Below, one piece after another: positions 496 to 16,309 of a stretch of DNA of 17,198 nt (its first letter is position 1; each line of letters starts with the position of its first letter). The stretch is from the NCBI GenBank assembly GCA_937135995.1, contig CAKZOF010000650.1, positions 1 to 17,198 of the forward strand. Direction: 5' to 3'. Made by a program: the position numbers and the translations under genes. The notes under the pieces are model-generated. The model saw only the letters and a list, made by a program, of their open reading frames with translations. It was not told the DNA's origin and did not search any database. The stretch comes from an uncultured Pyrinomonas sp. Its GTDB lineage: Bacteria > Acidobacteriota > Blastocatellia > Pyrinomonadales > Pyrinomonadaceae.

Positions 496-524
496 TTGAC
501 GCGCCCGCCCCGGCGTGCTAGGTT
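496..524 (+). promoter_or_regulatory. Candidate sigma-70-type promoter for the gcv operon
   Basis: TTGACG (496-501) matches the -35 consensus at 5 of 6 positions. After a 17-base spacer comes TAGGTT (519-524), preceded by TG at 516-517, an extended -10 arrangement. The -10 box itself is weak (3 of 6). A start of transcription near 531 would give a leader of about 65 bases ahead of the GTG of gcvT. This also argues against a gcvT start further upstream. Confidence 0.35.
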
Positions 525-595
525 TCCTTTTTGATCGACTTCATCCATACCAGCACCAAAATCTTGCGCGCCGCCGCACCCGAAGGGAGAACCGC

Positions 596-1714: not shown

Positions 1715-1839
1715 CGCGGCGAAAAACAAAAGCGAGCGCGCCGTCATCTCTTAGCGACAGTTTTCGGTTAGGGATTTAACCACCAGCAGATTATGACGCT
1801 TTGCATCAAAGTCCAGATGGGGGAGAACTGAACGGTCTC

Positions 1840-2232
1840 ATGGCACACGTTCCGGAAGACTTGCACTACAGCAAAGATCACGAGTGGGTCAGAGTCGAGG
1901 GTGATACGGCCGTGATCGGCATCACCGACTACGCGCAACACTCGCTGGGCGACATCGTCTACGTGGAACTGCCGCGCGTTGGCGACTCTTTTGCCGCGCA
2001 CGATGCGTTCGGCTCAGTCGAATCGGTCAAAGCCGTTTCCGAAGTCTACGCACCCGTCTCCGGCGAGGTGATCGAGGTCAACGAATCGCTTCAAGACGAA
2101 CCAGAGAAGGTCAACTCCGATCCATACGGCGATGGATGGATGGTTCGCGTCCGACTGCTGGACCCGGGCGAAGTGGACAGTCTGTTGACGGCAGCAGAAT
2201 ACGAAGACTACATCAAGAAGGAGACGGAGTAG
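1840..2232 (+). CDS. gcvH: Glycine cleavage system H protein (lipoyl carrier)
   Basis: H protein carries the aminomethyl intermediate between P, T and L proteins on a lipoyl group. From ATG 1840 the product is 130 residues, the usual length. The lipoylated lysine is K64 in the conserved ESVKAVSEVYAPVSGEV context, and the N-terminal KDHEWVRVEG and central GITDYAQHSLGDIVYVELP motifs are intact. A GGGGGAGA ribosome site lies about 14 bases upstream, rather far; an in-frame TTG at 1801 would give 13 extra residues but an atypical N-terminus. The 125-base gap after gcvT contains a small GGTTA/TAACC stem but no clear terminator. The stop is one base before the start of gcvPA, which suggests translational coupling. 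Its lipoylation must be done by enzymes not in this window. Confidence 0.96.
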   Translation: MAHVPEDLHYSKDHEWVRVEGDTAVIGITDYAQHSLGDIVYVELPRVGDSFAAHDAFGSVESVKAVSEVYAPVSGEVIEVNESLQDEPEKVNSDPYGDGWMVRVRLLDPGEVDSLLTAAEYEDYIKKETE

Positions 2233-2233
2233 A

Positions 2234-3598
2234 TTGCGTTACATACCCAATTCGCCCGAAGAACGCGCCGAGATGTTGCGTGCCATCGGGCTTGACTCGG
2301 CAGAGCAACTCTTCGATTCGATTCCACGCGATCTGTTGTTGACTGCGCCGCTGCGCACGCCGGCAGCCCTTTCCGAGCCGGAGATCATCGTCAGATTCGA
2401 GCAACTGGCGGCGCGCAATGCGGCGGCGCGCCGTCCCTCTTTTCTCGGCGCGGGCGCCTATGCTCACTACGCGCCGACGATCATCGACCACTTGATCTCG
2501 CGCGCGGAGTTCTTCACCGCCTACACGCCGTATCAGCCGGAAGTGTCGCAGGGGACGCTGCAAGCGGTCTTCGAATTTCAGACGCTGGTCTGCCAACTGA
2601 CCGGCATGGATGTCGCCAACGCGTCGATGTACGATGGTTCGACGGCGCTGGCCGAGGCGGTGTTGATGGCCGAGCGGCTCACGGGTCGCAGCCGCGTGGT
2701 CATCTCCGAAGCGGTGCATCCTGAATACTTCGAGGTGGTCCACACCTACGTTCAACATGCGGGGATAGAACTGGCGCGCGCCGCCATCGACCCGCATTCG
2801 GGTCGCACCTCGACCGCTGATCTCGCCACCGTGGATGACCGCACGGCGGCTTTCGTCGTCCAATCGCCGAACTTCTTCGGCTGCATCGAAGAGCTATCGA
2901 AGCTCGCCGACCTCGTCCATCAAAAGGGCGCGATGCTGATCGTCGCCGTCACCGAGAGCGCCTCTTTCGGCCTGCTCCGCCCGCCCGGCGATTGCGGTGC
3001 CGACATCGTCGTTGCCGAAGGCCAATCTTTCGGCGTGCCGCTCTCTTTCGGCGGCCCGTATGTCGGGCTGTTCGCGACGCGCGAAAAGTTCGTGCGTCAA
3101 ATGCCGGGCCGCCTTGTCGGCGTCGCCCATGACAAGCACGGGCGGCGTGGTTTCGTGCTCACGCTAGCGACGCGCGAGCAGCACATCCGCCGCGAAAAAG
3201 CGACCTCGAACATCTGCACCAACGAGGGGTTGATCGCGCTGGCGGCGACCATCTATATGGCGACCATGGGGCGGCGCGGGTTGCAAGAGGTGGCCCACCA
3301 ATGCGCGCAGAAAGCAGCTTATGCCGCCCGCCAGATCGCTTCGCTCGATGGCTTTTCGCTGCCTTACAGCGCGCCGCGCTTCAACGAGTTCGTCGTGCGC
3401 GCGCCGGTTCGCGCCGATGAACTGCTCAAGCAATTGGCGACCGAGCGCAACATCACGGGCGGGTTGCCGCTTTCGCGTTACTTTGCCGACCGGCCCAACG
3501 ATTTTCTCGTCTGCGTGACAGAACTGAACACGCGCGCCGAGATCGATGCGCTCGTGGCTGGCTTGAAGCAACTCGCCGTCGCCACCGTGGCGGCCTGA
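2234..3598 (+). CDS. gcvPA: Glycine dehydrogenase (decarboxylating), subunit 1 (P-protein alpha)
   Basis: This is the N-terminal half of a split P protein; with GcvPB it forms the PLP enzyme that decarboxylates glycine and loads the aminomethyl group onto H protein. The start is TTG 2234, one base after the gcvH stop, with AAGGAG at 2218-2223 inside the end of gcvH. This gives the family's typical beginning MRYIPNSPEERAEML and 454 residues, a normal length. Motifs seen include FLGAGAYAHYAP, AYTPYQPEVSQGTLQAVFEFQT, SMYDGSTALAEA, QSFGVPLSFGGPYVG and the late segment SNICTNEGL. No PLP lysine is expected in this subunit. The rare TTG start next to the overlapping ribosome site suggests that its level is tied to gcvH translation. 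Confidence 0.96.
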   Translation: MRYIPNSPEERAEMLRAIGLDSAEQLFDSIPRDLLLTAPLRTPAALSEPEIIVRFEQLAARNAAARRPSFLGAGAYAHYAPTIIDHLISRAEFFTAYTPYQPEVSQGTLQAVFEFQTLVCQLTGMDVANASMYDGSTALAEAVLMAERLTGRSRVVISEAVHPEYFEVVHTYVQHAGIELARAAIDPHSGRTSTADLATVDDRTAAFVVQSPNFFGCIEELSKLADLVHQKGAMLIVAVTESASFGLLRPPGDCGADIVVAEGQSFGVPLSFGGPYVGLFATREKFVRQMPGRLVGVAHDKHGRRGFVLTLATREQHIRREKATSNICTNEGLIALAATIYMATMGRRGLQEVAHQCAQKAAYAARQIASLDGFSLPYSAPRFNEFVVRAPVRADELLKQLATERNITGGLPLSRYFADRPNDFLVCVTELNTRAEIDALVAGLKQLAVATVAA

Positions 3599-3626
3599 CG
3601 GAGAAACAGAGCGAAAGGTATTTCCG

Positions 3627-5150
3627 ATGAACGGAAGCAAGATCACCAAAGCAACGCCGCACGTGACCCAAAACGAAGACTTGCTCTTCGAGCGTTCGCG
3701 CCGTGGACGCATCGGCTATCGGCTGCCGGCGCTCGATGTCGAGCCCACGCCGATCGACGAGATTGTGCCGGCGGAACTGCGCCGCGATGACGATCTCGAA
3801 GGTGTCCCCGAGCTGAGCGAAGTGGACGTCGTGCGCCACTTCACGCGCCTTTCAACTTGGAACTACGCGGTGGATCACGGCATGTACCCGCTCGGTTCGT
3901 GCACGATGAAGTACAACTCGCGCCTCAACGAAAAGGTCGCGCGCATCGCTGGCTTCGCCAACCTTCACCCACTCGCACCGGCAGAAGAGGCGCAAGGTGC
4001 GCTTGAGGTGCTCTACGAACTGCAGCAACATCTGGCCGAGATCACGGGGCTGCCCGGCGTCTCGCTCCAACCGGCAGCAGGCGCACACGGCGAGATGACC
4101 GGCGTCATGCTGATTCGCGCCTATCTCGACGCACGCGACGGCAAAGGTCACGGACGCGACGTGATGTTGGTTCCCGATTCCGCCCACGGGACCAATCCGG
4201 CATCGGCCAACCTTTCCGGTTTCCGCGTCAAAACGGTGCGCACCACTCCCGAAGGATTGACCGATCTGGACCAGTTGCGTGAGCTTTGCGCGACAGGTGA
4301 CGTCGCCGGTTTGATGCTCACCAACCCGAACACGCTCGGCCTGTTCGAGCGCAACATACGCGAGATATGTCATATCGTCCACGAAGCCGGCGGCTTGGTC
4401 TACATGGACGGAGCGAACATGAACGCGCTGGTCGGGTGGGCGCGCCCCGGAGACATGGGCGTCGACGTCATCCACCTGAATTTGCACAAGACCTTCTCGA
4501 CGCCTCACGGCGGCGGCGGCCCCGGCTCCGGACCGTGCTGTTGCACGGCGGCGCTCGAACCTTTTCTTCCGGTGCCGCGCATCGTGCGCGAGGGCGAGGC
4601 GTTCAAACTCGATTACGACCGGCCCCAGTCGATCGGGCGCGTTCGCGCCTTCTACGGCAATTTCGGCATGGCCGTGCGTGCGCTCGCCTACATTCTCACG
4701 CACGGCCCCGACGGTATGCGCGAAGCCACAGAAGCAGCCGTGCTCAACGCGCGCTACATCGCTCAGGCGCTCGCGAGCGACTATGAAAAACCGTACCAAG
4801 CGCCGCCCATGCACGAAGTCGTCTTCACCGACAAACGACAAGCGCGCAAGGGCGTGCACACGCTCGACATCGCTAAGCGTTTGATCGATTACGGGTTTCA
4901 TCCGCCGACGATCTACTTTCCGTTGATCGTGCAAGGCGCGATGTTGATCGAGCCGACGGAATCGGTCGGGCGCGAAGAACTGGACCAATTCGTTGCCGCC
5001 ATGCGCGCCATCGCGCGCGAAGCGGAAGAAGAACCCGAAACGGTGCGCAATGCGCCGCACACGACGCGCATCGGACGGCTGGATGAAGCCGCGGCAGCGC
5101 GCCGCCCCGTGCTTCGCTGGAAGCCAACGGCGAAAGCAGAATCGGCCTGA
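3627..5150 (+). CDS. gcvPB: Glycine dehydrogenase (decarboxylating), subunit 2 (P-protein beta)
   Basis: This is the PLP-bearing C-terminal half of the split P protein. The product is 507 residues, slightly long for the family (commonly about 480-500). ATG 3627 has an AAAGG site 8 bases upstream. The hallmark MYPLGSCTMKYN lies near residue 90, the glycine-rich GAHGEMTGVM follows, and the PLP lysine is K288 in the motif HLNLHKTFSTPHGGGGPG. The C-terminal lobe keeps the conserved RLIDYGFHPPTIYFPL and IEPTES segments. The tail after about residue 470 is Ala/Arg-rich and probably disordered. It is the last gene of the operon; 227 bases follow before the convergent small gene, in which I see no clear terminator. 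No lipoamide dehydrogenase (L protein) gene follows. Confidence 0.96.
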   Translation: MNGSKITKATPHVTQNEDLLFERSRRGRIGYRLPALDVEPTPIDEIVPAELRRDDDLEGVPELSEVDVVRHFTRLSTWNYAVDHGMYPLGSCTMKYNSRLNEKVARIAGFANLHPLAPAEEAQGALEVLYELQQHLAEITGLPGVSLQPAAGAHGEMTGVMLIRAYLDARDGKGHGRDVMLVPDSAHGTNPASANLSGFRVKTVRTTPEGLTDLDQLRELCATGDVAGLMLTNPNTLGLFERNIREICHIVHEAGGLVYMDGANMNALVGWARPGDMGVDVIHLNLHKTFSTPHGGGGPGSGPCCCTAALEPFLPVPRIVREGEAFKLDYDRPQSIGRVRAFYGNFGMAVRALAYILTHGPDGMREATEAAVLNARYIAQALASDYEKPYQAPPMHEVVFTDKRQARKGVHTLDIAKRLIDYGFHPPTIYFPLIVQGAMLIEPTESVGREELDQFVAAMRAIAREAEEEPETVRNAPHTTRIGRLDEAAAARRPVLRWKPTAKAESA

Positions 5151-5980: not shown

Positions 5981-6622
5981 TCACGGCGTCACCGCTTCTT
6001 TCACCTTGCTGCCGACCTTTTTGGCGCCTTCGACGGTCTTCTCGCCGGCTTTCTTGGCACCCTCGGCCGTCTTCTCGCCGACCGTCTTGGCACCTTCCGC
6101 GACCTTGGAACCGACCGTCTTCGCGCCCTCGACGGTCTTCTCACCAACGACTTCCGCGCCTTCGGCTGTCTTCTCAAGCGCCGTGCTGGCTCCTTCCTTG
6201 ACCGCGCCCGCTGCCTCTTTGGACTTGTCAACGACGAAACCCGCCGCATCGGCTAGCGCGTCGCCCGTCGCTTCAAGCGCTTCCGCCACCTTGTTCTCCG
6301 GTAACTCCTTGACTTCACCAGTGCGCGAGTAAACGCGCGCCGTGCGTCGCCCGCTGCGGTCCGTTGTGACAACCACCTTCTCGACGCGGCTGTTCGGATT
6401 GCGGAAGATGCGCGTCTCAGTGCGAACGCCGTTCTCTTCGGTGACGGTGATCTCGGTGTCATCTGGACCGGGGCGCGTCTGCTGCGCGACGGTCATGTTG
6501 GCGTTGACGTTGCTCACGGCCACGTTGGCGTTGACATTCGCGTTCGACATCTGCTCGTTCCGCGCGCAACCCGCTGCCAGAAGTGCCAGCACGAGCGTGC
6601 CCGTTGCTACCCTGCTGTTCAA
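5981..6622 (-). CDS. Lipoprotein with LEA-like 11-residue repeats
   Basis: A predicted 213-residue lipoprotein. The start is TTG 6622, chosen because a strong AAGGGAGGAAG site precedes it and a compact lipoprotein signal follows: a basic NSR segment, a hydrophobic core, and the lipobox LAAGC with C19 as the lipidated residue. An Asn/Val-rich linker (NANVNANV type) follows, then a small charged domain (about 50-110: TEITVTEENGVRTETRIF and a VVVTTDRSGRR strand). From about residue 125 onward the chain is a Lys/Glu/Ala-rich amphipathic helix ending in five 11-residue repeats of the form EKTxEGAKxxG. This periodicity and composition match the 11-mers of group 3 LEA (LEA_4-type) proteins, which are disordered when hydrated and fold on drying. 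A membrane-anchored stress or envelope-spacer role is inference. It is 206 bases downstream of the glycosidase gene and has its own candidate promoter. Confidence 0.85.
   Translation of the reverse strand: MNSRVATGTLVLALLAAGCARNEQMSNANVNANVAVSNVNANMTVAQQTRPGPDDTEITVTEENGVRTETRIFRNPNSRVEKVVVTTDRSGRRTARVYSRTGEVKELPENKVAEALEATGDALADAAGFVVDKSKEAAGAVKEGASTALEKTAEGAEVVGEKTVEGAKTVGSKVAEGAKTVGEKTAEGAKKAGEKTVEGAKKVGSKVKEAVTP
6011..6175 (-). repeat. Five tandem 33-bp repeats encoding LEA-like 11-mers
   Basis: Five in-frame units occupy 6011-6043, 6044-6076, 6077-6109, 6110-6142 and 6143-6175. Read on the minus strand they encode EKTAEGAEVVG, EKTVEGAKTVG, SKVAEGAKTVG, EKTAEGAKKAG and EKTVEGAKKVG. The DNA copies differ at several positions, so the repeat is not a recent slippage product and the protein pattern appears to be kept by selection. 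Confidence 0.85.
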
Positions 6623-6828: not shown

Positions 6829-8073
6829 TCAAAGTTGGGGCTCATCGGCGAAGTGTGTCCGAAAACGGCTGTAGAGGCGGGCCAAGTTCCAGCGCGGCGA
6901 CTTGTAGAAATCTTCGGGCGCGATGTCCACCCAAGAAAGATCGCGGCACAGAGCGAGTCGTTCCCTCGCGCCGAAAGATTCCACTGCGCGGACAGCTGGT
7001 TTCGGCGATCCATCGGCACGCCACAGGCCGAAGAAGCGCTCGTGCACGGACTGATCGAGCGGCGGTTCGTGCCAGATCCTTTCGCTGTAGTCGTTGGCGC
7101 ACCAAACGGCAGCGCCCATCAAGCCGAAGCGGTGGAGCGAAACAAGCGCGCGCCGCGTGAAGCTTGCGGCCTCCTCCTCGGAGAGCAACTTGAAGGCCGC
7201 GCCGCCGACCTCGAATCCGAGAGGTTTCGTCGGCGCGCCGAACTCTTCGAAGAGCACATCGCGCCCGCCGAGCCAATGGGTCACCAGCCCGAGAAACGGC
7301 AAGACGAGCTCGTCGGTTTCGCTCGCAGCCCAACTCGCATAGAGCGGATAACCGTGCATGCAGAGGAAATCGCAAGCTTGCCCGGCCTCGGCCGGACCGA
7401 TTTTCCGATCCTCTTCGAGGTCTTCCATATGTAGCCCGATCGTCACAGGGCGGCCCGGATCTGCGACGCGTATCTCGCCGGCCATGCGCGCAAGCCACGA
7501 GATGCCAGCCTCGCGCGAAGGCGGCACGACGCAGTTAGAATTTTCGTTTCCGAGATCCCATGCCCAGACCGCCCGGTGACCGGCAAGCGCCTGCGCCGCC
7601 GTGCGCGCCAGCAGAGCTTGCGCCGTGCTGATCGCATCGTCCGTGTACCAGTTTTTCGGCACGGCTTGCACGACTCTGTCTTGCGCGATGAGGCGAAAAC
7701 GCGGCGGCGACGTCGGCGCTCGCGCGTCGAGCGCCCACGCGGGCAACCAGTTGACGCCGCTCATGTGTCCCGTGAAGAGCGTCGGGATAAGCCGCAGGCT
7801 GTGGCTAGCGGCGATGTCGGCGACGCGCACGAGCCGACCGAGCATCGTTTCGGAGACGACCTCCGGAGCGGGTTGAAAATCTTCCCACAAGAGGAAGATA
7901 CGCACCACATCGAACCCAGCGCGACCGAGACGCGCGAAGTCTCGGTCCACTTCGCCTTCGGCGAAACGTTGCCACCAGCGCATGGCGCTTTGCGCGGGCC
8001 AATAGTTCACGCCGAGGATGAAGCGGTCGCGCGCGCTATCGCTCTGAGACGAGAGTCGATGTCGTTCTTGCAT
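6829..8073 (-). CDS. Clan GH-A (GH5-like) glycoside hydrolase, intracellular
   Basis: A 414-residue TIM-barrel glycosidase. The general acid/base is E177 in AWDLGNENSN (strand 4) and the likely nucleophile is E277 in VLFEEFGAPT (strand 7); together with GVNYWPA at residue 21, LLWEDFQP at 61 and MHGYPLY near 239 these are marks of clan GH-A retaining beta-glycosidases, including the cellulase/mannanase group. Substrate cannot be read from the sequence; beta-mannosides are suggested by the neighbours. There is no signal peptide, so it should act in the cytoplasm. ATG 8073 is the only start that includes the first barrel strand with some lead; no good ribosome site is present, and a perfect palindrome sits where one would be expected. 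It is 93 bases after the GT4-cupin gene and probably last in the cluster. It could alternatively act as a transglycosidase. Confidence 0.85.
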   Translation of the reverse strand: MQERHRLSSQSDSARDRFILGVNYWPAQSAMRWWQRFAEGEVDRDFARLGRAGFDVVRIFLLWEDFQPAPEVVSETMLGRLVRVADIAASHSLRLIPTLFTGHMSGVNWLPAWALDARAPTSPPRFRLIAQDRVVQAVPKNWYTDDAISTAQALLARTAAQALAGHRAVWAWDLGNENSNCVVPPSREAGISWLARMAGEIRVADPGRPVTIGLHMEDLEEDRKIGPAEAGQACDFLCMHGYPLYASWAASETDELVLPFLGLVTHWLGGRDVLFEEFGAPTKPLGFEVGGAAFKLLSEEEAASFTRRALVSLHRFGLMGAAVWCANDYSERIWHEPPLDQSVHERFFGLWRADGSPKPAVRAVESFGARERLALCRDLSWVDIAPEDFYKSPRWNLARLYSRFRTHFADEPQL

Positions 8074-8075
8074 TA

Positions 8076-8087
8076 CGCTGGCCAGCG
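8076..8087 (-). promoter_or_regulatory. Perfect 12-bp palindrome just before the glycosidase start
   Basis: CGCTGGCCAGCG is a perfect palindrome ending two bases before the ATG. As RNA it could form only a short 4-bp stem, so a DNA operator or a block on translation starts are both possible. It occupies the position of the ribosome site, and no Shine-Dalgarno sequence is visible. Confidence 0.35.
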
Positions 8088-8099
8088 AAGCGCAACTCT

Positions 8100-8141
8100 G
8101 TGGCCGCGCGAAAAAGGGGTCAAGCGCGGCTCGGTTGCCAC
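8100..8141 (-). other. Intergenic hairpin between GT4-cupin and glycosidase genes
   Basis: CCGCGC (8104-8109) pairs with GCGCGG (8124-8129) over a 14-base loop; GTGG (8100-8103) and CCAC (8138-8141) can extend the stem across a one-sided 8-base bulge. On the minus strand no T-tract follows, so it is not a standard terminator. It may stabilise or separate segments of a shared mRNA. Confidence 0.4.
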
Positions 8142-8166
8142 TTTCGGACTAACTTCGTCGCTCGAA

Positions 8167-9552
8167 CTACGACACTCGTCCGAAATCATCTTCCAAACGG
8201 ACGATGTCATCTTCGCCGAGGTAGTCGCCGCGTTGAATTTCGATGAAGATGAGCTTTTCGTCACCCGGGTTTTCGATGCGGTGGGCGGCGCCCTTGGGGA
8301 TGTCGATGGTTCCACCCGTCGGCACGATAATCTCTTTGCCGTCCAACGTCACTTTTCCCGTGCCTTGTACCATCATCCAGTGCTCGGCGCGGTGCGCGTG
8401 CTTTTGGTAACTCAGACGCTTGTGCGGCAAGACCTCTATGCGCTTGACCTTGTAGCCAGCGCCTTCGTCCAACACGGTGAAACTACCCCACGGGCGCTCG
8501 TCGTAAAGCGGCGACCCATCGGCGCTCGTGCGCCCTCGTTTGTCTTCCATGCGCAGAACCTCCTCGTACACGCTGATGTAGTTTTCAACCATGCGCTCCC
8601 GGCTAAAACGACGCTCGACGTGGGCGCGAATGCGCGCGCGATCCAACGATGGTAGCTGGCTGAGCGCCTCCACGGCCTCATCCACCGAGCGAACGATGAA
8701 GCCGGTCTCGCCATCTTCGATGATTTCGGGGACTGAACCGCGTGGCGTGGCGATGACTGGTGTGCCGCAAGCCATCGCCTCCACCATGCTTAGGCCGAAC
8801 GGTTCGTTGAAGTTGATCAGGTGAAGCAGCGCCTTGGCTCCGCCGAGGAGTTCATCGCGGCGCTCGGGTCCGACGGAACCGATGTAGCGGATGCGCTCGT
8901 CGAGAAAAGGCTCGACTTCACGCGCGAAGTAATCACGATCCTGTATGATCCCAGCGATGATCAGGCGCTCGCCGCTGCGCCGCGCGACCTCGATGGCTTC
9001 GCGCGCGCCTTTGTCGTGGTGAATGCGTCCGAAGAAGAGGAGATAATCGCCCGCCTCACGCCGCAACGTGAACTCTTCGAGCGGGATGCCGTGGTAAACG
9101 GTGGCGACGTAATCGAGCCGGGGGTGTCGGTCCGCGTTACTGATGGCGACGTAGTAGGTGCGACCGTTGTACTTCTCGTAAACGGGCACGATCCGTTCGG
9201 AAGAGAAGCCGTGAATCGTGGTCACCACGGGCGTCTGGACCAGCCCGCTGTAGGAAAGCGGCAGGAAATCGAAGTGATTGTGAATGAGATCGAACTCCGC
9301 CGCTCGTTCGAAGACCGCTGAGATATGCAAGCACTCCCAGACTTTCGGGTCGATGCTCGGGTCCTCCGAGTATGGGCGCGGGCAAATGCCGACCAGACGC
9401 GCGCGCGTGATCGAGTCTGCGGTGGCGAACAAGGTCACGTCGAGGCCGCGCTCGACCAAGCCTTCCGTCAACAGCGAAACGACTCGTTCCCACGGCCCGT
9501 AGTGGCGCGGCGGCACGCGCCACGAAATGGGCGCCAACATGGCGACTCGCAT
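8167..9552 (-). CDS. GT4 glycosyltransferase fused to type II mannose-6-phosphate isomerase cupin
   Basis: A 461-residue two-domain protein. Residues 1-335 are a GT-B fold GT4 retaining glycosyltransferase: the N-terminus reads MRVAMLAPISWRVPPRHYGPWE, and the nucleotide-sugar lobe has FFGRIHHDKG near 173 and the EX7E motif E250-E258 in EPFGLSMVE. After a short linker, residues 353-461 match the C-terminal isomerase domain of type II phosphomannose isomerase/GDP-mannose pyrophosphorylase enzymes: RPWGSF at the start, the metal motif QKHAHRAEHW (383-392, His 385, His 387, Glu 390), His 424, and the closing GDYLGEDDIVRLEDDFGR. All metal ligands are kept, so interconversion of fructose-6-P and mannose-6-P is plausible. 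The usual guanylyltransferase half is absent. ATG 9552 follows an ACGGAG site 8 bases upstream. It sits between the GH130 and GH-A genes. The acceptor and donor are unknown; GDP-mannose is a guess from the fused domain. Confidence 0.9.
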   Translation of the reverse strand: MRVAMLAPISWRVPPRHYGPWERVVSLLTEGLVERGLDVTLFATADSITRARLVGICPRPYSEDPSIDPKVWECLHISAVFERAAEFDLIHNHFDFLPLSYSGLVQTPVVTTIHGFSSERIVPVYEKYNGRTYYVAISNADRHPRLDYVATVYHGIPLEEFTLRREAGDYLLFFGRIHHDKGAREAIEVARRSGERLIIAGIIQDRDYFAREVEPFLDERIRYIGSVGPERRDELLGGAKALLHLINFNEPFGLSMVEAMACGTPVIATPRGSVPEIIEDGETGFIVRSVDEAVEALSQLPSLDRARIRAHVERRFSRERMVENYISVYEEVLRMEDKRGRTSADGSPLYDERPWGSFTVLDEGAGYKVKRIEVLPHKRLSYQKHAHRAEHWMMVQGTGKVTLDGKEIIVPTGGTIDIPKGAAHRIENPGDEKLIFIEIQRGDYLGEDDIVRLEDDFGRVS

Positions 9553-9615
9553 CTTCAATGCTCCGTGTATCTCGCTCAACAGAACGAAAACGCCGGCTTG
9601 GCTTTTTTGGTCAGT

Positions 9616-9668
9616 GGCAGCTTGAGCGACGCGAAGCCGCGAGCGGCAGAAAGGGCTCCGAAGCTGCC
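9616..9668 (-). other. Structured intergenic element after the GH130 stop
   Basis: GGCAGCTT (9616-9623) and AAGCTGCC (9661-9668) are exact reverse complements. The 37 bases between them can form two smaller hairpins on the minus strand (GAGC/GCTC, and CGCG-GCTT-CGCG), giving a three-way-junction-like fold. It begins 9 bases after the GH130 stop and ends 63 bases before the GT4-cupin start. No T-tract follows, so it is not an intrinsic terminator on this strand. Confidence 0.4.
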
Positions 9669-9677
9669 GCCCAGCAC

Positions 9678-10631
9678 TTAACTGTTCTCCTTCAACCAAT
9701 CGAGAAGCTCGCGGACGTTTCCCGTCGCAAGCGCGATCGACGTATCGGCGGCGCCGTAGTAGAGGCGTAATTCATCCGTCTTGGTGTCGTGGACGAAACC
9801 GCACGGGAAGACCACATCGCCGACGTCGCCCGTCCTTTCGTAAGGTTCGTCGGGACCGAAGATCCACTCGTCGCCGCGGCGAATGACTTGCCGCGGATCG
9901 TCCAGATCGAACAGCGCCAGCCCCAAGCGGTAGAGACAACCGGCTGGCGTTATGCGCACGCCGTGGTAGATGACAAGCCACCCTTCGGGCGTTTCGATCG
10001 GCGGCGGACTCAAACCGATCTTGTTAGCATCCCACCACGCGCCGCGCCGCGCTTCCAACATCACCGTGTGGTCTCCCCAGTGGCGCAGGTCAGGCGAAAA
10101 TGAGACCCACATGTTCGCTTTGGTATGCGGGAAGTTCGACACGGGCCGGTGAATCAGCGCCCACCGCCCGTTGAAACGACGCGGGAAGAGCGCCGCATCC
10201 TTGTCTTCGGGCGGCATCACCGCGCCCAAGCGTTCGAAATAGCGAAAATCCTGGGTTTTGGCGAGCGAGACGAGCGGTCCTGAAGTTGAGTAGGAGGTGT
10301 AGGCGATGACGAAGCAGTTGAGTTCCTCGACCCACGTGATGCGGGGATCCTCGATGCCCCAGACCTCTTCCGGATAATGCTGCGGGTCGGGCACAAGCGT
10401 TGGCTCCGTGTCGATTCGCCAATTGGAGACGCCGTCTGGCGAGCGCGCGGCCGTCAGGTGCGAGATACCGCGCCGGTCTTCGACGCGCACCAAAAGCAGC
10501 GTTTCGCCCGACGGAAGAAGCGTCGCCCCGGCGTTGAAGACGCTGTTAGCCGGGTATGGCCACATCTCAGCTGTCAAGATGGGATTGCCTTCATAGCGGC
10601 GAAACAGTTCTCTGAATTTGCTGTTCTTCAT
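9678..10631 (-). CDS. GH130 family glycosidase/phosphorylase (beta-mannoside type)
   Basis: A 317-residue five-bladed beta-propeller enzyme of family GH130, whose members phosphorolyse (some hydrolyse) beta-mannosides, releasing mannose-1-phosphate. Signs: NPILTAEMWPYPANSVFNAGA near the N-terminus, the catalytic Asp as D95 in WGIEDPRITW, the ALIHRPV segment followed by MWVSFSPDLRHWG, SPPPIETPEGWLVIYHGV, and the closing YYGAADTSIALA. The SPPPIETPEGW and HRP segments look phosphorylase-like, but hydrolysis cannot be excluded without aligning the phosphate-binding residues. ATG 10631 is preferred to a TTG 24 bases upstream because AAAGGAAAG directly precedes it and the start then matches the family; the site is close to the ATG. 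No signal peptide is present. It lies between the two glycosyltransferase genes, consistent with turnover of the product they make. Confidence 0.92.
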   Translation of the reverse strand: MKNSKFRELFRRYEGNPILTAEMWPYPANSVFNAGATLLPSGETLLLVRVEDRRGISHLTAARSPDGVSNWRIDTEPTLVPDPQHYPEEVWGIEDPRITWVEELNCFVIAYTSYSTSGPLVSLAKTQDFRYFERLGAVMPPEDKDAALFPRRFNGRWALIHRPVSNFPHTKANMWVSFSPDLRHWGDHTVMLEARRGAWWDANKIGLSPPPIETPEGWLVIYHGVRITPAGCLYRLGLALFDLDDPRQVIRRGDEWIFGPDEPYERTGDVGDVVFPCGFVHDTKTDELRLYYGAADTSIALATGNVRELLDWLKENS

Positions 10632-10703
10632 CTTTCCTTTCTTCCCGGATCGCAAACGAAATTGTCATTCATCGAACCATAGGACCCCTTGAAAGTAGAA
10701 TAT

Positions 10704-10721
10704 GCCCGATGCGGGCTTTTT
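10704..10721 (+). terminator. Plus-strand intrinsic-terminator-like hairpin with T5
   Basis: GCCCG (10704-10708) and CGGGC (10712-10716) form a 5-bp GC stem with a 3-base loop, directly followed by TTTTT (10717-10721) on the plus strand. The shape is a minimal rho-independent terminator, but both flanking genes are on the minus strand. It sits in the 260-base gap before the GH130 start and might end an antisense or small RNA, or be fortuitous. Confidence 0.35.
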
Positions 10722-10891
10722 CCCCCAAAGGCTTGATTTTTCCGTAGACGGCGCCAGTACGTCTTCGGAAAACGTGCGGGCGCTGGGGACGAGATTGCCG
10801 GAAGAGCTTTGTTCAGTCGAAGCAGTGCCACACCACGCCCCGGCGGAGCGTGTTCGGCTTCGCCCCATGGGAGATCCCTGCATCATCATCT

Positions 10892-13375
10892 TCAATCGGA
10901 ACTTTCGCTTCGATCACCGGTAACTGCCGCTTCGAGCGGGGCGGGCAGCGCAACTGAAACCGACGCAGCAGCGGCGATCTCCAATTTCTTTTCGCGCAAC
11001 CGCGCCGCCGCCAATAAACCCAACAGGCAGCAGATGACCGATTCAGCCCCTTGGTTCAGGCTCGGCCCTTGCGGATCGAGACCGTCCGAGCAGGCGCCCG
11101 TGACCAGATCATACAGGCGCGCGCCGAGCCGATTGCGCCCGAGCAACCACTCGACCGCTGCGCGCGCCATCTCCAGATAGTAGCTCTTTTCAGTGATCTC
11201 GTAAGCTACGGCGCACGCCTCGGCCGTGTAGCCGGCCTCTATTGGTTGCTGCCCGAAGGTCGCGCGTTCGCCGCCGCGCCGGTACCATCCCTGATTACCG
11301 ACGAAATCGAATTGCCCGCCCGAGTAGGTTTGCTCGAGCAGGAAATCGAGCGATTCGAGTCCGATGCGCAGAAATCGTTCATCGCCGGTCGCTTGATAAG
11401 CAAGCAACATGGCTTGCGCTGGCTTAGCGTTGGCGTAGGTCAACTCGTCGCCGAACCACCGCCAATCGTCCGTGCGCGCTGATTCGTAGATCAAGGCCAA
11501 GCGACAAGCCAACTCGTCGAGCTTGCGTCGCACCAGCGCCGCCCCGTCGTACCGCTGCAGAAAGGCGTGCAATCCGCAGATCGCGTAACCGATGGCGCGC
11601 GGGTGGCGCATGTCGAGCGCATCGAGCGAACGTTCGAACATCTCGCGCGCAAGCGCACGCATCCCTTCGGTCGGCCCCAACGAGACGGCCATGCCGACGC
11701 CCCAAAGCGCACGCCCAAGCGTGTCTTCGCTGCCCACTTCGTCCGTGAACCGGCGCGCGTAGTTCATGAAGTTGTGGAAGCGCCCGTCGGGACACTGCGC
11801 CAGTTGCAAAAAGCTCAGGTAGGTCGTGGCAAGTTTCAGCGCCGTCGGATCCTCGAAGTTGCGGTAGTGCATCAGGGTGACCACCAATGCGCGCCCGGCA
11901 TCGTCGGTCGAGTAGCCGAAGCGACGATCCGGTATGCCATAAGTCGCGTGTTGAATCAAGCCCGTATCATCAGTCAACCGCACGAGGTGGTCCAGCTTGA
12001 TTTCGGGCACATCCAAACTCGGTCGCACGAAGGGCAACGCCGCCGTCGCCCGTCCTTGATAGTCGGCCACCGTTTGCCGGAAAAGCTCGACATAGGCACG
12101 CCCGACTTCGGGCCACGTCATCTGCCGCCCGAATTTGTAAGCGCGCTTGCGCATCTGGTGGCGCATCGCCTCGTTTTCGATCAAGCGGATGATGGTCCGC
12201 GCAAGGGCTTTGGAATCTCCGAACGGGACCAGCTTACCGCGCCCGTTGGCAAGCAACTCCTCAGCGTACAGGTACGGCGTCGAAACTACAGCCTTGCCCA
12301 TGCCGACGGCATAGGCGAGCGTGCCGCTGACGATCTGATCGCGCGACTGATAGGGCGTGACGTAGATGTCGCACGCACCCAAGAATTCGCGCAGTTCGTC
12401 GTCGTCGACGTAGCGATCGTAGAAGATGACGTAATCTTCCAATCCGAGCTCGCGCACGCGCCGCTTCAACATCAAGCGGTACTCTTCGCCGTCGCGCCGT
12501 TTCACTTCCGGATGCGTCGCGCCGAGGACGATGTAGACCACTTCAGGATGCGCTTGCACGATCTCGGGCAGAGCGTCGAGCATCATCTCGATGCCTTTGT
12601 TGCGACTGAGCAACCCGAAAGTGAGCAGCACGAAGCGACCCTCGACGCCGAACTTGTCTTTGTAATAGTTTGGATCGACGAACGGAACGTCAGGCACGCC
12701 GTGATGAATGAGCGCGACCTTTTCTTCACCGATGCCGTAAACATCGCGCAACAACTGAATCGCGCGGCTGTTGAGCACCACGAGCCGGTCCGACGCGTTG
12801 GCCACACGGATGAGCGAGACGCGATAGCCAGGCAACGGTTCGCTCAACACGGTGTGCAGCGTCGTTACTACCGGTTTGTTCAGGTTCTTGAGCAGTTCGA
12901 GAATGTACCGTCCTTCCGGTCCACCGAAGATGCCGAACTCGTGCTGCACGCAAACGATGTCAGCACCCGAGAAGTTGATGTACTCGGCTGCCAGCCGATA
13001 ATCGTTCAACTGATTCTGCCTGATCTCGAAGACAACCTCCGGCGGATACTTGTAAACGTTCGGCGGATTCGTCATCGCGATGACGAACGCTTCCACATCG
13101 TCGGACGCCTGGCAGATAGATTCGCGCAGGTCGCGCGTGAAAGTTCCGATGCCACACTCGCGCGGAGGGTAAGTACCGATCAAACAGACCTTAAGATGCC
13201 GTTCGCCGGACTCTTTTTCGTTCAACGCGGCGGCGCGATTGCGCCGCTGGAGCGCGAGACGAGGCGTATTAGCGCTCTCCTCCAATCGCTCTTTGGCGAG
13301 TCGCGCGCGCTCCGTCTCCTTCTCCGCTGAACTCAGCTCATGCCGGTTCCGGTTATCGGTGGCTTTCACCTTCAT
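10892..13375 (-). CDS. GT4 glycosyltransferase fused to an alpha/alpha-toroid domain
   Basis: An 827-residue cytoplasmic protein. Residues 1-60 are highly charged and probably disordered or helical. Residues 61-435 are a GT-B fold GT4 domain: CLIGTYPPRECGIGTFTRDL at 64, VQHEFGIFGG at 143, TLHTVLSEP at 172, HHGVPDVPF at 224 and FGLLSRNKGIE at 253. Where most GT4 enzymes have EX7E, this has DQIVSGTLAYAVGMGKAVVS (346-365), a variant seen in a GT4 subgroup. Residues about 455-800 form a helical repeat domain with ATYGIPDRRFGYSTDDAGRA (477-496), a DDWRWFGDELTYANAKPAQA segment and a final LNQGAESVICCLLGLLAA, resembling six-hairpin (alpha/alpha) carbohydrate enzymes. Its activity is unknown: hydrolase, epimerase or phosphorylase are options. 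ATG 13375 has an AAAGGGGG site 3 bases upstream. It is the first gene of the cluster, 260 bases ahead of GH130. Confidence 0.88.
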   Translation of the reverse strand: MKVKATDNRNRHELSSAEKETERARLAKERLEESANTPRLALQRRNRAAALNEKESGERHLKVCLIGTYPPRECGIGTFTRDLRESICQASDDVEAFVIAMTNPPNVYKYPPEVVFEIRQNQLNDYRLAAEYINFSGADIVCVQHEFGIFGGPEGRYILELLKNLNKPVVTTLHTVLSEPLPGYRVSLIRVANASDRLVVLNSRAIQLLRDVYGIGEEKVALIHHGVPDVPFVDPNYYKDKFGVEGRFVLLTFGLLSRNKGIEMMLDALPEIVQAHPEVVYIVLGATHPEVKRRDGEEYRLMLKRRVRELGLEDYVIFYDRYVDDDELREFLGACDIYVTPYQSRDQIVSGTLAYAVGMGKAVVSTPYLYAEELLANGRGKLVPFGDSKALARTIIRLIENEAMRHQMRKRAYKFGRQMTWPEVGRAYVELFRQTVADYQGRATAALPFVRPSLDVPEIKLDHLVRLTDDTGLIQHATYGIPDRRFGYSTDDAGRALVVTLMHYRNFEDPTALKLATTYLSFLQLAQCPDGRFHNFMNYARRFTDEVGSEDTLGRALWGVGMAVSLGPTEGMRALAREMFERSLDALDMRHPRAIGYAICGLHAFLQRYDGAALVRRKLDELACRLALIYESARTDDWRWFGDELTYANAKPAQAMLLAYQATGDERFLRIGLESLDFLLEQTYSGGQFDFVGNQGWYRRGGERATFGQQPIEAGYTAEACAVAYEITEKSYYLEMARAAVEWLLGRNRLGARLYDLVTGACSDGLDPQGPSLNQGAESVICCLLGLLAAARLREKKLEIAAAASVSVALPAPLEAAVTGDRSESSD

Positions 13376-13645: not shown

Positions 13646-16309
13646 TCAATGAACGAACCGCTCGACCGATAACCTTTCGCCATCCGACCGGACGCTAATC
13701 ATGCCGCTTTCCGCCGTGGTCAACACTTGCGCGCCTGCATCGCGCCAGCGCCGGACCACCTCTTCGTGTGGATGGCCGAAAGGTGACTGCTTGCTGACGG
13801 AGATGATGGCGAAGGACGGGCGCGTGCGTGCGACGAACTCTTGAACGGAAGAGGTGCGGCTGCCGTGGTGCGCCACCTTGACGACATCGCACTGCAGATC
13901 GTCTGGCGATGTTCGCGCCAGACTCCGTTCCACTTCGCCGTCTATGTCGCCGGTCAACAGCACCGCGTGCGTGCCATGCCGGATGCGTAATACGAGCGAT
14001 CGTTGATTGTCTCCGAGCGCCGCGCTCTCCGCGGGCGGCCAAAGGACGTCGAGCGTAACGTCTTGGCTGCGTAACACGTCGCCGCGTTCCACTTTTTCGA
14101 GCGGAACGCCGCGTTCGCGCAGGACTTCAGCGAACCGAACGAAGTTCGGGCTGGTCCAATCGAACGAGGCGACCAGCGCCGTGCGCACGCGAAACAGCCG
14201 CGCAACGTCGATCGCTCCGCCGATGTGATCGGCATCCGAATGGGTCACGACGAGATAATCGATGCGATCCAACCCGCGCCACCAGAGATGCTCGGCCACG
14301 ATGCGCTCACCGACGGAGCGCACGTCCGGCTCGAACGCGTCCAGTTCATCCTCCTCTTCGAGGCGCAGCGGCTCTCCGCCGCCATCGACGAGAAGCGTCG
14401 TTCCGTCGGGCAACGTGATCAGCGTCGCATCGCCTTGACCGACATCGAGGAAATCGATATGCAGGAGCCCATCCGCCGGACGCGCACTCCCTGGATGAGC
14501 GATGACGACCCACGCGAGAACTGTCAGCGCAAAAGCGCAGAACGCGGCGCTGTGGCTTCGGTTTTCTGGCCGCGACCAATCCCATTTGCCGAGTGAGCGG
14601 AGAAGCAGCAGGAAGAAGACGTAGTAGAGCGCATAGATCGCCGCGCGCCAACCGGAGTACGTCGGCACGCGCACCGCGGCGAGCCCCAACTTCGAAAACG
14701 GTTCGACCATCGCCGTCAACGTGTGCACGAGCCATGTGCTCGCTTCCGCCGACCACATCACAGCGACGTCGCTCACCGGCGAGAGTAACAGCGCACACAG
14801 CCCGCATAGCGCCAACAACGCGAGCAGTGGACCGGCGACCAGATTCAACAGCAATCCGGCGATGGAGATGCGATGAAAGTAGATGATCTGCACGGGAACG
14901 AGCGCCGCCTGCGTCGAGAGCGAAACGATCGCGCCCACCATCGCGTAACGCAGCGGACGTTGCAGGCCGAAGCGTTCGAACCACAAAGCCACCGGCGTTT
15001 TGAACAAGCGGTAGCTGTAAGGTAAACGCGCCATGTCGCGCCGCCACCGCCGCTCGCTCCAGTAGAGCGCTTCGGACACGAGACGAAACGGACGCACGCA
15101 CTCCGGCGGGTGCGGCGTCGTGCGCGTTGGACGCCACTCACCAACGGCCCGCATCCGCTCGCAAACGGGCCACGCCAGAGAGACGATGGCCAGCACTGAA
15201 AGGAAGGTCAGGTGAAAGGACCAATCAAACAACGCGCGCGGGTTCCACACGAGCAACGCGAGCGCGGCGCCGCCGAGCGCATTGAGCGATGGCGCGCGGC
15301 GCTGGACCACAGGCCCGAAGCTCACTGCTGTCCACATCAGGGCCGCGCGCGCCACGGGCACGTCGAATCCAACCAACAGCGCATAGCCCCAAACGACAGC
15401 GTTGGTCAACAGGAAGCGCAACACTAGATTGCGCGTCAGCCAGCGAGAAAGCAACAGCGCGAAGCCGCCGATGAAAGCGATGTGCGAACCGCTGATGACG
15501 AGCAGGTGGAAGATGCCGCCCTCGCGAAAAGCTTCGCCCGTCTCGCGCGAGATAGAATGTCTTTCGCCGAGCGTCATCGCCTTGATGACGCCGGCGGTCC
15601 TCGCCTCGAAGACCTCATCCAACCGTTGCGCGATGCGCGCGCGATGCTCTTCCAACAACCGAAACAAGCCGCCCCTGCGCTCATCGCTTAAACGTTCGAT
15701 CAGCAGAGGGCTTTTGATCGTGCCCCAAGCTTCGATGCCGAGGCGGCGCGCCCAATCGAGACGAGAGGCGACGCCCGGATTGCGCGCGCCCGTTTCGCGC
15801 TTCAAACGCACTAGTGCACGAACGCGCGCCCCGTAACCGAGCGCCAGCGCCCGGTAATCATCGCGTGCCGCGGCATCGCGCAAAGGCAGAAACAGTTCGA
15901 CTTCGCCCGCGGTCTCGCGCTCTTGTCCCGAGTAGATGATGCGCCGCGCATCGACTCGCAACCGCACGCCGTCGGGCGCGCGTTCCGGCGCGCGCACGAG
16001 TACGCCGTCGAGGGCGACGGGCTCGCCCGACGGAATCAGTCCTCTCTCGTAAAGCGCCCCGAGCCGCTGACCGGCCCGCGCTTCTTCGAGATGCCACGCC
16101 GCCACGCCAGCGCAAAGGTAAGCGGCCATGACGGCAACGGTGGCAACCAGAGCGCGACCGCGCAGCAGAACGGCGCATGAAGCAGCGAAGAAGCAGGCTG
16201 CAAGCGCGACGGCCGAAGCGACAAATGGAGCGCACAGGATGCCGACCGCAAACGAGACGGCGAGCCAGAGCAACGGGTGAGGATCGAAGTTCCGCGGACG
16301 AGGTCTCAT
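13646..16309 (-). CDS. comEC: ComEC/Rec2 DNA-uptake channel protein
   Basis: An 887-residue membrane protein with the three parts expected of ComEC, which carries single-stranded DNA across the inner membrane in natural transformation. The N-terminus has two to three hydrophobic helices and then a soluble DUF4131-type domain (about 90-200). The central competence domain (about 230-600) includes KAMTLGERHSIS, FHLLVISGSHIAFIGG and many membrane helices. The C-terminus (about 615-887) is a metallo-beta-lactamase-like domain: LDVGQGDATLI, LLVDGGGE, the metal motif THSDADHIGG with His 690, Asp 692, Asp 694 and His 695, LLTGDID and VKVAHHGSRTS. All catalytic ligands look intact, so it is probably functional. 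ATG 16307-16309 fits the family start, though the ribosome site is weak. It stands 270 bases upstream of the GT4-toroid gene and 101 bases after the ArnT-like gene. Confidence 0.95.
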   Translation of the reverse strand: MRPRPRNFDPHPLLWLAVSFAVGILCAPFVASAVALAACFFAASCAVLLRGRALVATVAVMAAYLCAGVAAWHLEEARAGQRLGALYERGLIPSGEPVALDGVLVRAPERAPDGVRLRVDARRIIYSGQERETAGEVELFLPLRDAAARDDYRALALGYGARVRALVRLKRETGARNPGVASRLDWARRLGIEAWGTIKSPLLIERLSDERRGGLFRLLEEHRARIAQRLDEVFEARTAGVIKAMTLGERHSISRETGEAFREGGIFHLLVISGSHIAFIGGFALLLSRWLTRNLVLRFLLTNAVVWGYALLVGFDVPVARAALMWTAVSFGPVVQRRAPSLNALGGAALALLVWNPRALFDWSFHLTFLSVLAIVSLAWPVCERMRAVGEWRPTRTTPHPPECVRPFRLVSEALYWSERRWRRDMARLPYSYRLFKTPVALWFERFGLQRPLRYAMVGAIVSLSTQAALVPVQIIYFHRISIAGLLLNLVAGPLLALLALCGLCALLLSPVSDVAVMWSAEASTWLVHTLTAMVEPFSKLGLAAVRVPTYSGWRAAIYALYYVFFLLLLRSLGKWDWSRPENRSHSAAFCAFALTVLAWVVIAHPGSARPADGLLHIDFLDVGQGDATLITLPDGTTLLVDGGGEPLRLEEEDELDAFEPDVRSVGERIVAEHLWWRGLDRIDYLVVTHSDADHIGGAIDVARLFRVRTALVASFDWTSPNFVRFAEVLRERGVPLEKVERGDVLRSQDVTLDVLWPPAESAALGDNQRSLVLRIRHGTHAVLLTGDIDGEVERSLARTSPDDLQCDVVKVAHHGSRTSSVQEFVARTRPSFAIISVSKQSPFGHPHEEVVRRWRDAGAQVLTTAESGMISVRSDGERLSVERFVH

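What the first reader, a model, noticed from the sequence alone, without database searches (positions are those of the whole stretch)
6829..13375. Intracellular build-and-recycle glycoside cluster: GT4-toroid, GH130, GT4-isomerase, GH-A
Four consecutive minus-strand genes combine two glycosyltransferases, a GH130 phosphorylase-type enzyme, a glycosidase and a mannose-6-phosphate isomerase domain. None has a visible signal peptide. Family knowledge links GH130 to beta-mannosides and the isomerase cupin to supply of mannose-6-P, so the set could make a mannose-containing glycoside or short mannan inside the cell and release it again as mannose-1-P. A storage or stress solute is one inference. 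I know of no described pathway with this exact set, but I could not search.
Basis: partly seen in the sequence, partly recalled or inferred. Interest (0 to 1): 0.75.

Follow-up and report, generated by a model that had tools for sequence, protein, structure and literature searches.

The report
Bacterial mannose glycoside build-and-recycle gene set
Four neighbouring bacterial genes look like a cell-internal kit for making a mannose-containing sugar and taking it apart again; half of the kit, an unusual two-domain sugar transferase beside a mannose-releasing enzyme, recurs in many distant bacteria and its product is unknown.

Summary
The four minus-strand genes are real: T (GT4 + helical toroid), G (GH130), C (GT4 + mannose-6-phosphate-isomerase cupin), A (GH5-like glycosidase). 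They recur together: 9 of 60 genomes (own included) carry all four, and in these 60 A never occurs without T, G and C. The conserved units are two pairs. T-G is far more widespread: T lies within 1.6 kb of G on the same strand in 70 of the 80 fetched GH130 loci (best 80 of 426), under about eleven phylum-level labels. C-A is a narrower add-on that accompanies T-G, in 2 of the 9 genomes on a separate contig.

G keeps phosphorylase residues and an active-site signature of beta-1,2-mannoside phosphorylases. T is odd: its GT4 half lacks the usual Arg and EX7E glutamates, and its toroid has conserved acids. GT4 enzymes retain alpha-configuration, so T and C should not directly make the beta-bond G cleaves; a mixed alpha/beta glycoside is the simplest reading. 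Substrate, direction and role are untested. The nearest described cluster is in Thermoanaerobacter (GH5, two GH130, GT4, mannose-1-P guanylyltransferase).

The parts
10892..13375 (-). T: two-domain protein, GT4 glycosyltransferase + (alpha/alpha)6 toroid, 827 aa
   Evidence: AlphaFold model mean pLDDT 88.6; the 120 best homologues listed are 668-845 aa
12056..13204 (-). GT-B (GT4) domain of T, residues ~58-440; lacks the usual Arg (L255) and EX7E (Q347...Y355)
10976..12010 (-). (alpha/alpha)6 toroid domain of T, residues ~456-800, with conserved D469, D491, D492, D551, D764, E778
9678..10655 (-). G: GH130 mannoside phosphorylase-type enzyme (ATG start likely at 10631)
8167..9552 (-). C: GT4 glycosyltransferase fused to a type II mannose-6-phosphate isomerase cupin, 461 aa (ORF open up to 9699)
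8188..8496 (-). PF01050 cupin (PMI) domain of C; only match over the family cut-off in the assembly
6829..8073 (-). A: GH-A clan glycosidase, GH5 beta-mannosidase/mannanase-like; N176-E177 and E277 conserved

Best explanation
A cytosolic mannoside build-and-reclaim module made of two gene pairs. Shown by sequence: a GT4-toroid next to a GH130 with phosphorylase residues (core pair T-G), plus a GT4 fused to a mannose-6-P isomerase cupin and a GH5-like glycosidase (add-on pair C-A). Inferred steps: the cupin makes mannose-6-P from fructose-6-P; a sugar-phosphate mutase and a guanylyltransferase-like enzyme elsewhere in the genome give mannose-1-P and GDP-mannose; T and/or C (retaining GT4s) build an alpha-linked glycoside; G adds or, when sugar is needed, phosphorolytically removes beta-mannosyl residues (most likely beta-1,2) as alpha-mannose-1-P, which re-enters GDP-mannose or glycolysis through the same isomerase; A hydrolyses remaining beta-mannosyl bonds, and the toroid of T edits or trims the product. 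The product would be a soluble mixed alpha/beta mannose-containing oligosaccharide serving as reserve or protective solute. The category (intracellular mannoside turnover with both synthesis and phosphorolysis) is the supported part; linkage, acceptor, direction and physiological role are inference.
For: T within 1.6 kb of G on the same strand in 70 of 80 GH130 loci under about eleven phylum-level labels. In 60 genomes (own included): G strong in 13, T in 11 (all with G), C-type GT4 in 10 (all with G), A in 9 (all with T, G and C); in 2 of those 9 the C-A pair is on another contig. G: Glu102-Asp103, Lys152, Arg170, His231 in 85 of 85 sequences, position 212 Lys in 81 and Arg in 4; the beta-1,2 enzymes Lin0857 and 9FJ8 show the same GxED and (D/N)KD motifs, while the beta-1,4 enzymes TM1225, UhgbMP and RaMP2 have Tyr-Asp-Pro-Arg and NRN. 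Cupin: the only PF01050 match over cut-off, and no PF01238 match, in the assembly. A guanylyltransferase-like gene overlaps a sugar-phosphate-mutase gene in the same genome. A resembles GH5 mannan enzymes and keeps N176-E177 and E277. No hydrophobic N-terminus. Other beta-mannoside-type enzymes lie near the pair in two unrelated loci: a GH2 with mannosidase Ig domain in L035 and a GH113-like protein (23.9 bits, under the 27 cut-off) in L093.
Against: No substrate is shown. The GT4 half of T lacks the canonical Arg and EX7E glutamates, so GDP-mannose use is not assured. C is closest to a UDP-glucose:sucrose glucosyltransferase, so its donor may be UDP-glucose. The guanylyltransferase-like hit is under its family cut-off (280 of 440 bits), and the mutase next to it fits an archaeal GlmM-type model best, also under cut-off (233 of 439; the gene runs off the stretch held). 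By overall score G is closer to the beta-1,4 enzyme TM1225 (241 bits) than to Lin0857 (204 bits). In 5 of 80 loci G has no T in the DNA held, and only 5 of the 16 C loci show the cupin: fused in L020 and L065, apparently a separate ORF in L022, L026 and L031. Within family f1 only 3 of 37 genomes carry all four genes.
Confidence: 0.5

Rival explanations
1. Catabolic salvage, as proposed for Thermoanaerobacter: imported beta-1,2-mannosides are cut by GH130 and the GH5 enzyme to Man-1-P, which feeds GDP-mannose; the GT4s are only consumers of GDP-mannose.
For: Very similar gene list (GH5, two GH130, mannose-1-P guanylyltransferase, GT4) in Thermoanaerobacter with measured beta-1,2 phosphorylase activity (PMC4264767, passages). 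beta-1,2-type signature in G.
Against: The Thermoanaerobacter cluster has five ABC transporter genes; none is among the window ORFs scanned, and none of 20 neighbour proteins from 16 loci was a sugar importer by Pfam (one ABC ATPase in an Ardenticatenia locus, beside an NPCBM-associated-domain protein). The tightest partner of G is a GT4-toroid, not a transporter.
Confidence: 0.2
2. Surface-glycan or glycolipid precursor assembly with proofreading: T and C add sugars to a membrane-bound acceptor at the inner face, G and A remove wrong or excess beta-mannosyl residues.
For: GT4 domain of T scores closest to phosphatidylinositol mannosyltransferase PimA and to HepE among PDB sequences; GT4s are common in such pathways (established knowledge). 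A truncated ORF at the window edge beyond ComEC weakly resembles a membrane arabinosyltransferase (33.7 of 567 bits).
Against: No flippase, polymerase, priming transferase or export gene among the window ORFs and the 20 neighbour proteins scanned. No third gene recurs beside T-G across phyla in the 80 loci.
Confidence: 0.17
3. Glucosylsucrose-like solute: C makes alpha-1,2-glucosyl or mannosyl oligosaccharides on sucrose or a similar acceptor as a thermoprotectant, and T, G and A handle an unrelated mannoside.
For: C GT4 matches TeGSS, a glucosylsucrose synthase, E 3e-86, with its catalytic Tyr18 and Arg179 kept (PMC9909042 abstract and passages).
Against: In 60 genomes C-type GT4s occur only with G (10 of 10) and have A beside them in 9 of 10, and C carries a PMI domain; sucrose enzymes were not established in the genome (one partial S6PP-type match).
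Confidence: 0.1

Closest known systems
Thermoanaerobacter sp. X-514 GH130 cluster Teth514_1785-1796 (PMC4264767, passages)
   Same: GH5 glycosidase, two GH130 phosphorylases, a GT4 mannosyltransferase annotation and a mannose-activation enzyme in one unidirectional cluster, no signal peptides on the GH130s; the four f7 relatives here also have two GH130s in tandem.
   Different: It has ABC transporter genes and a guanylyltransferase; here there is no transporter, a PMI fused to GT4 instead, and an extra GT4-toroid protein as the most conserved partner.
Leishmania mannogen turnover by GT108 (PMC8950772, passages)
   Same: Intracellular mannose polymer made and reclaimed by enzymes with the GH130 fold using alpha-Man-1-P.
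   Different: There the GT108 proteins themselves have both transferase and phosphorylase activity; here GH130 is paired with separate GT4s. No polymer has been shown here.
Uhgb_MS mixed-linkage mannoside synthase, GH130 (PMC8950772 Table 1 row)
   Same: A GH130 that adds beta-1,2-mannose from Man-1-P, also onto alpha-1,2-mannosides, which is the chemistry a GT4 plus GH130 pair would need.
   Different: Gut enzyme, 154 bits to the window G; its gene context was not seen here.
TeGSS/alr1000 alpha-1,2-glucosyltransferase, glucosylsucrose synthase (PMC9909042, abstract and passages)
   Same: GT4 half of C; equivalents of Tyr18, Arg179 and Lys184 conserved.
   Different: The TeGSS chain has no PMI domain (361 residues) and uses UDP-glucose and sucrose.
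Mannobiose 2-epimerase + GH130 mannosylglucose phosphorylase pathway (recalled)
   Different: No conserved His in the second half of the toroid, and G scores low against mannosylglucose phosphorylases (123-130 bits, against 241 for TM1225).

Membership tests
GH130 inverting mannoside phosphorylases | PF04041 family match | tested here: met
   185 bits, cut-off 26; 11 of 11 sequences in A1
GH130 inverting mannoside phosphorylases | Catalytic Asp and basic phosphate-binding residues present (not replaced by Glu as in hydrolases) | tested here: met
   D103, R170, H231 in 85 of 85; K212 in 81 of 85 with Arg in 4. Mapping to UhgbMP numbering is mine, from the alignment and recalled residue numbers
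beta-1,2-mannoside phosphorylases | Glu (not Tyr) before the catalytic Asp and Lys at the +1-site position | tested here: met
   E102 and K152 in 85 of 85; same in Lin0857 and 9FJ8, not in TM1225, UhgbMP, RaMP2; rule from PMC4599007 section 20. That K152 is the paper's Lys199 is inferred
beta-1,2-mannoside phosphorylases | Measured activity on beta-1,2-mannobiose or oligomannan | not testable with these tools
   needs enzyme assay
NCBIfam beta-mannobiose phosphorylase equivalogs (NF050092, NF052550) | Score over curated cut-off | tested here: not met
   227 of 550 and 189 of 450 bits: G is outside the named equivalogs
Canonical GT4 glycosyltransferase (T) | GT-B fold, GT4 family match | tested here: met
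Canonical GT4 glycosyltransferase (T) | Diphosphate-binding Arg before the conserved Lys, and EX7E glutamates (recalled) | tested here: not met
   L255 in 83 of 84 (Lys260 84 of 84); Q347 84 of 84 and Y355 82 of 84 where glutamates are expected; in the PimA alignment the first Glu pairs with residue 346 instead, Glu/Asp in 58 of 84
GT4 (C) | GT4 match with Arg/Lys and EX7E | tested here: met
   R176, K181, E250, E258 in at least 95% of 120 homologues
Type II PMI cupin (C) | PF01050 match and the signature Q.H.HR.EHW ... GEDDI.R ... GR (recalled) | tested here: met
   127 bits, cut-off 23.6; Q383, H385, R388, E390, H391, W392, H424, G446-I450, R452, G458, R459 in at least 95% of 120 homologues; the window has the second His (H387), but it is under 95% in the set
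AGE/cellobiose 2-epimerase family (toroid of T) | (alpha/alpha)6 fold | tested here: met
AGE/cellobiose 2-epimerase family (toroid of T) | Two catalytic His in the second half of the domain (recalled) | tested here: not met
   No His column over 90% after residue 476 in 39 toroids; best is 31 of 39 at 688, where the window has Gln
GH9 or GH76-type hydrolases (toroid of T) | Fold plus catalytic acids in family positions | tested here: inconclusive
GH5 (A) | Similarity to GH5 enzymes and two catalytic Glu | tested here: met
   7BOB endo-mannanase E 3.7e-20, GH5_18 about 1e-12, mostly over residues ~12-124; N176-E177 and E277 in at least 95% of 120 homologues; their catalytic role is inferred
GH5 (A) | Match to a GH5 family model | tested here: not met
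   The window protein passes no Pfam model; some of its listed homologues carry PF00150
Thermoanaerobacter-type GDP-mannose salvage cluster | ABC sugar importer in the cluster | tested here: not met
   None among the window ORFs scanned

The most novel reading that the evidence does not exclude
T-G is a widespread, undescribed bacterial system for an intracellular beta-mannoside reserve or mixed alpha/beta mannoside, a bacterial counterpart of mannogen. T is a new kind of two-domain enzyme: its GT4 half, having lost the nucleotide-sugar Arg and the EX7E glutamates, may itself be a retaining alpha-mannoside phosphorylase or use an unusual donor, while the toroid is a second active site acting on the same chain, so that T and G share one mannose-1-phosphate pool and can run without spending nucleotides.
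Probability: 0.18. Interest if true: 0.78.

Novelty: new variant of a known kind. Interest (0 to 1): 0.52.

Why it matters
A GT4-toroid/GH130 gene pair shared by very distant, mostly uncultivated bacteria points to an intracellular sugar that, as far as my searches show, nobody has isolated. GH130 is, as I recall the field, read mainly as a family for using plant or fungal mannans; a fixed partnership with a glycosyltransferase would add an anabolic or storage role, and named strains that carry the pair (Pyrinomonas methylaliphatogenes K22, Anaerolinea thermolimosa IMO-1) make it directly testable. The altered GT4 active site and conserved acids of T also predict new chemistry.

Tried and rejected
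T-G gene fusion: my own ORF caller gave single long ORFs in L081 and L075 covering both genes. Reading them showed the part upstream of GH130 to be out of frame with T, so no fusion is claimed.

Toroid as a mannobiose/cellobiose 2-epimerase, which would pair naturally with GH130: rejected as the leading idea because no His in the second half of the toroid is conserved. The fold match alone would have suggested it.

Toroid as C5-epimerase-C, GH127, GH9, GH88 or GH76: only weak or scattered profile matches (E up to 0.1: C5-epim_C in 6 of 39 members, best 1.1e-7; GH127 in 5, pectic lyase in 4, GH9 in 3, GH88 in 1) and an E 0.057 match to a GH76; left open.

Residue equivalence between the paper's Lys199 and K152 rests on alignment to Lin0857 and 9FJ8, not on BT3780 itself, which was never among the printed alignments.

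Recurring third partners of T-G in other phyla: neighbour clusters in the 80 loci were lineage-specific; only 20 neighbour proteins from 16 loci were scanned with Pfam. Three loci have a phosphoglycerate-mutase-family gene after G (L045, L052, L092; the L045 one scanned).

Sucrose route: one partial S6PP-type match in the assembly, not resolved.

PMI elsewhere: only PF01050 and PF01238 were tried; the PF01238 control rang in just 2 of 14 genomes, so another PMI type is not excluded. TIGR01479 hit only the cupin of C.

Literature: searches listed no title or abstract on a GT4-toroid/GH130 pair; one search returned no papers. One search (YPO2471, 7TEM) listed four papers, of which one on AlphaFold testing (PMC10776388) is the only biological-structure paper; it was not opened. 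The library lacks most subscription journals. Read: PMC9909042 (abstract and passages), PMC4599007 (passages and section 20), PMC8950772 (passages and table rows), PMC4264767 (passages). All others were seen only as search listings.

Full report
What was checked. The window is a 17,198-base contig of a 3.45 Mb, 97%-complete assembly. Start corrections: C most likely begins at ATG 9552, G at ATG 10631. No hydrophobic N-terminal stretch was found in any of the four.

Conservation of the set. In 60 genomes (own included), G has a strong match in 13 (plus one weak, G015), T in 11 (E 1e-60 or better), a C-type GT4 (69% identity or more) in 10, and A in 9 (E 1e-20 or better). All 11 T genomes have G; all 10 C genomes have G; all 9 A genomes have T, G and C. 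Of the two G genomes without a full T match, G028's contig is cut inside T (L022) and G008 has none in the DNA held (L028). Three G genomes (G008, G045, G049) lack a C of that identity. Of the 9 genomes with all four genes, 7 have them side by side (in G039 the two pairs are divergent) and 2 (G051, G055) have T-G and C-A on different contigs. These genomes are related, so this is a pattern, not a probability; it spans three families (f1, f4, f7). Within f1, 3 of 37 genomes (own, G001, G022) carry all four. Other rows set aside: distant GT4s in G049 and G057 (40-42%) and cupin-only matches in G012, G028 and G057.

The wider unit. The genome-contig scan with G found 426 encoding stretches, of which the best 80 were fetched. 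In 68 of 80, T lies upstream of G on the same strand within 1.4 kb (63 with hit-to-hit gaps of 393 nt or less; 4 with a second GH130 and 1 with another GT4 between), and in 2 of 80 downstream. In L060 and L079 T is about 2 kb upstream behind another GT4-like stretch; L072 begins at such a stretch; L052 and L083 are cut at the contig edge; L025, L028, L037, L045 and L092 show no T. Record titles of the 70 place the pair in Acidobacteria, Chloroflexi, Armatimonadetes, Planctomycetes, Krumholzibacteriia, Ignavibacteria/Bacteroidetes, Nitrospiria, Deltaproteobacteria, Dadabacteria, Sumerlaeota and Actinomycetota; most are MAGs, so some labels may be wrong. In the same 80 loci the C GT4 is in 16, a cupin beside or fused to it in 5 (fused in L020 and L065; apparently separate ORFs in L022, L026, L031) and A in 8. 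In the protein lists, contig lengths 8120, 74538, 12493, 13913 and 9113 each recur in the T, C and A lists, suggesting more contigs with the set.

G. Pfam and PDB matches make it GH130. It is outside the NCBIfam beta-mannobiose phosphorylase equivalogs. In 85 sequences (window, 80 loci and 4 tandem copies), Glu102-Asp103, Lys152, Arg170 and His231 are invariant, and position 212 is Lys in 81 and Arg in 4. The PDB alignments show the same Glu-Asp and (Asp/Asn)-Lys-Asp motifs in Lin0857 and in the 1,2-beta-oligomannan phosphorylase 9FJ8, whereas TM1225, UhgbMP and RaMP2, which act on beta-1,4 bonds (PMC8950772 tables), differ at both places. PMC4599007 (section 20) sets Glu in place of Tyr next to the catalytic acid apart as a mark of the GH130_NC group that holds the beta-1,2-mannosidases, ties a Lys to beta-1,2 specificity, and ties loss of the basic residues to hydrolases. 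Overall score still ranks TM1225 first. I read G as a phosphorylase with a beta-1,2-type site, in a subfamily of its own. A second GH130 type in five C-containing loci (titled Planctomycetota, Deltaproteobacteria, Syntrophobacterales and Acidobacteriota) has Arg-Asn instead of Lys-Asp (5 of 6 minor sequences).

C and A. The GT4 of C is a relative of the cyanobacterial glucosylsucrose synthase TeGSS (E 3e-86), with its catalytic Tyr and Arg kept. Its cupin carries most type II PMI residues (one His under 95% among homologues) and is the only PF01050 match over cut-off in the assembly; no PF01238 match was found. The fused architecture appears in all 120 listed homologues, though the query length favours that. 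A resembles GH5 mannan enzymes and keeps both expected catalytic Glu. Elsewhere in the genome a guanylyltransferase-like gene (best family mannose-1-P guanylyltransferase, 280 bits, under the 440 cut-off) overlaps a phosphohexomutase-family gene (best model archaeal GlmM, under cut-off, cut by the end of the stretch held), so a route from fructose-6-P to GDP-mannose is plausible but not proven.

How it may work. GT4 enzymes retain the alpha configuration (established knowledge; PMC9909042 says the same of TeGSS) and GH130 inverts beta-mannosides to alpha-Man-1-P. So the bond G acts on is not one that T or C would make directly. The simplest consistent scheme is a mixed product: alpha bonds from T and C, beta-mannosyl units added or removed by G from Man-1-P, A and the toroid as trimming activities, and the PMI as entry and exit to glycolysis. 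Uhgb_MS, a GH130 listed as making beta-1,2-mannosyl alpha-1,2-mannosides (PMC8950772 table), shows such chemistry exists. The constant GT partner, and the absence of importers among the window ORFs and the 20 neighbour proteins scanned, favour endogenous turnover over feeding on imported mannan, which is the rival drawn from Thermoanaerobacter (PMC4264767).

Novelty and verdict. A comparable gene list is in print for Thermoanaerobacter. A GT4-toroid/GH130 pair as a widespread unit did not appear in my search listings, in a library that lacks most subscription journals. I rate it a new variant of a known kind, interest 0.52, with the bolder reading at 0.18.

Noticed in passing
window 5981-6622 (-): Downstream of A: a lipoprotein-like ORF (LLAAGC lipobox) with 33-nt (11-residue) repeats of the type EGAKTVGEKTA, reminiscent (recalled) of LEA-like stress proteins; among the 80 loci a relative was clustered only in K22 (L020).
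   Followed up: partly
window 515-5150 (+): Glycine cleavage genes gcvT, gcvH, gcvPA, gcvPB in order on the plus strand.
   Followed up: yes
window 13646-16309 (-): ComEC/Rec2 DNA-uptake protein upstream of T; among the 80 loci a relative was clustered only in K22.
   Followed up: partly
L060, L065, L072, L079: Loci titled Deltaproteobacteria, Syntrophobacterales or Acidobacteriota (L072) carry another GT4-like gene just upstream of G (23-26% to T; a GT4 of 408 aa by Pfam in L065) and a second GH130 (38-41% identical) with an Arg-Asn motif instead of Lys-Asp.
   Followed up: partly
L045, L052, L092: A phosphoglycerate-mutase/metalloenzyme-family gene (about 395 aa; the L045 copy scanned) directly follows G, with no T in the DNA held (L052 is cut at the contig edge).
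   Followed up: no
7TEM (YPO2471), public structure: An uncharacterised exported protein is the closest solved structure to the toroid, sharing DDxxRA and NxGAEST motifs; the search listed no paper on its function.
   Followed up: partly
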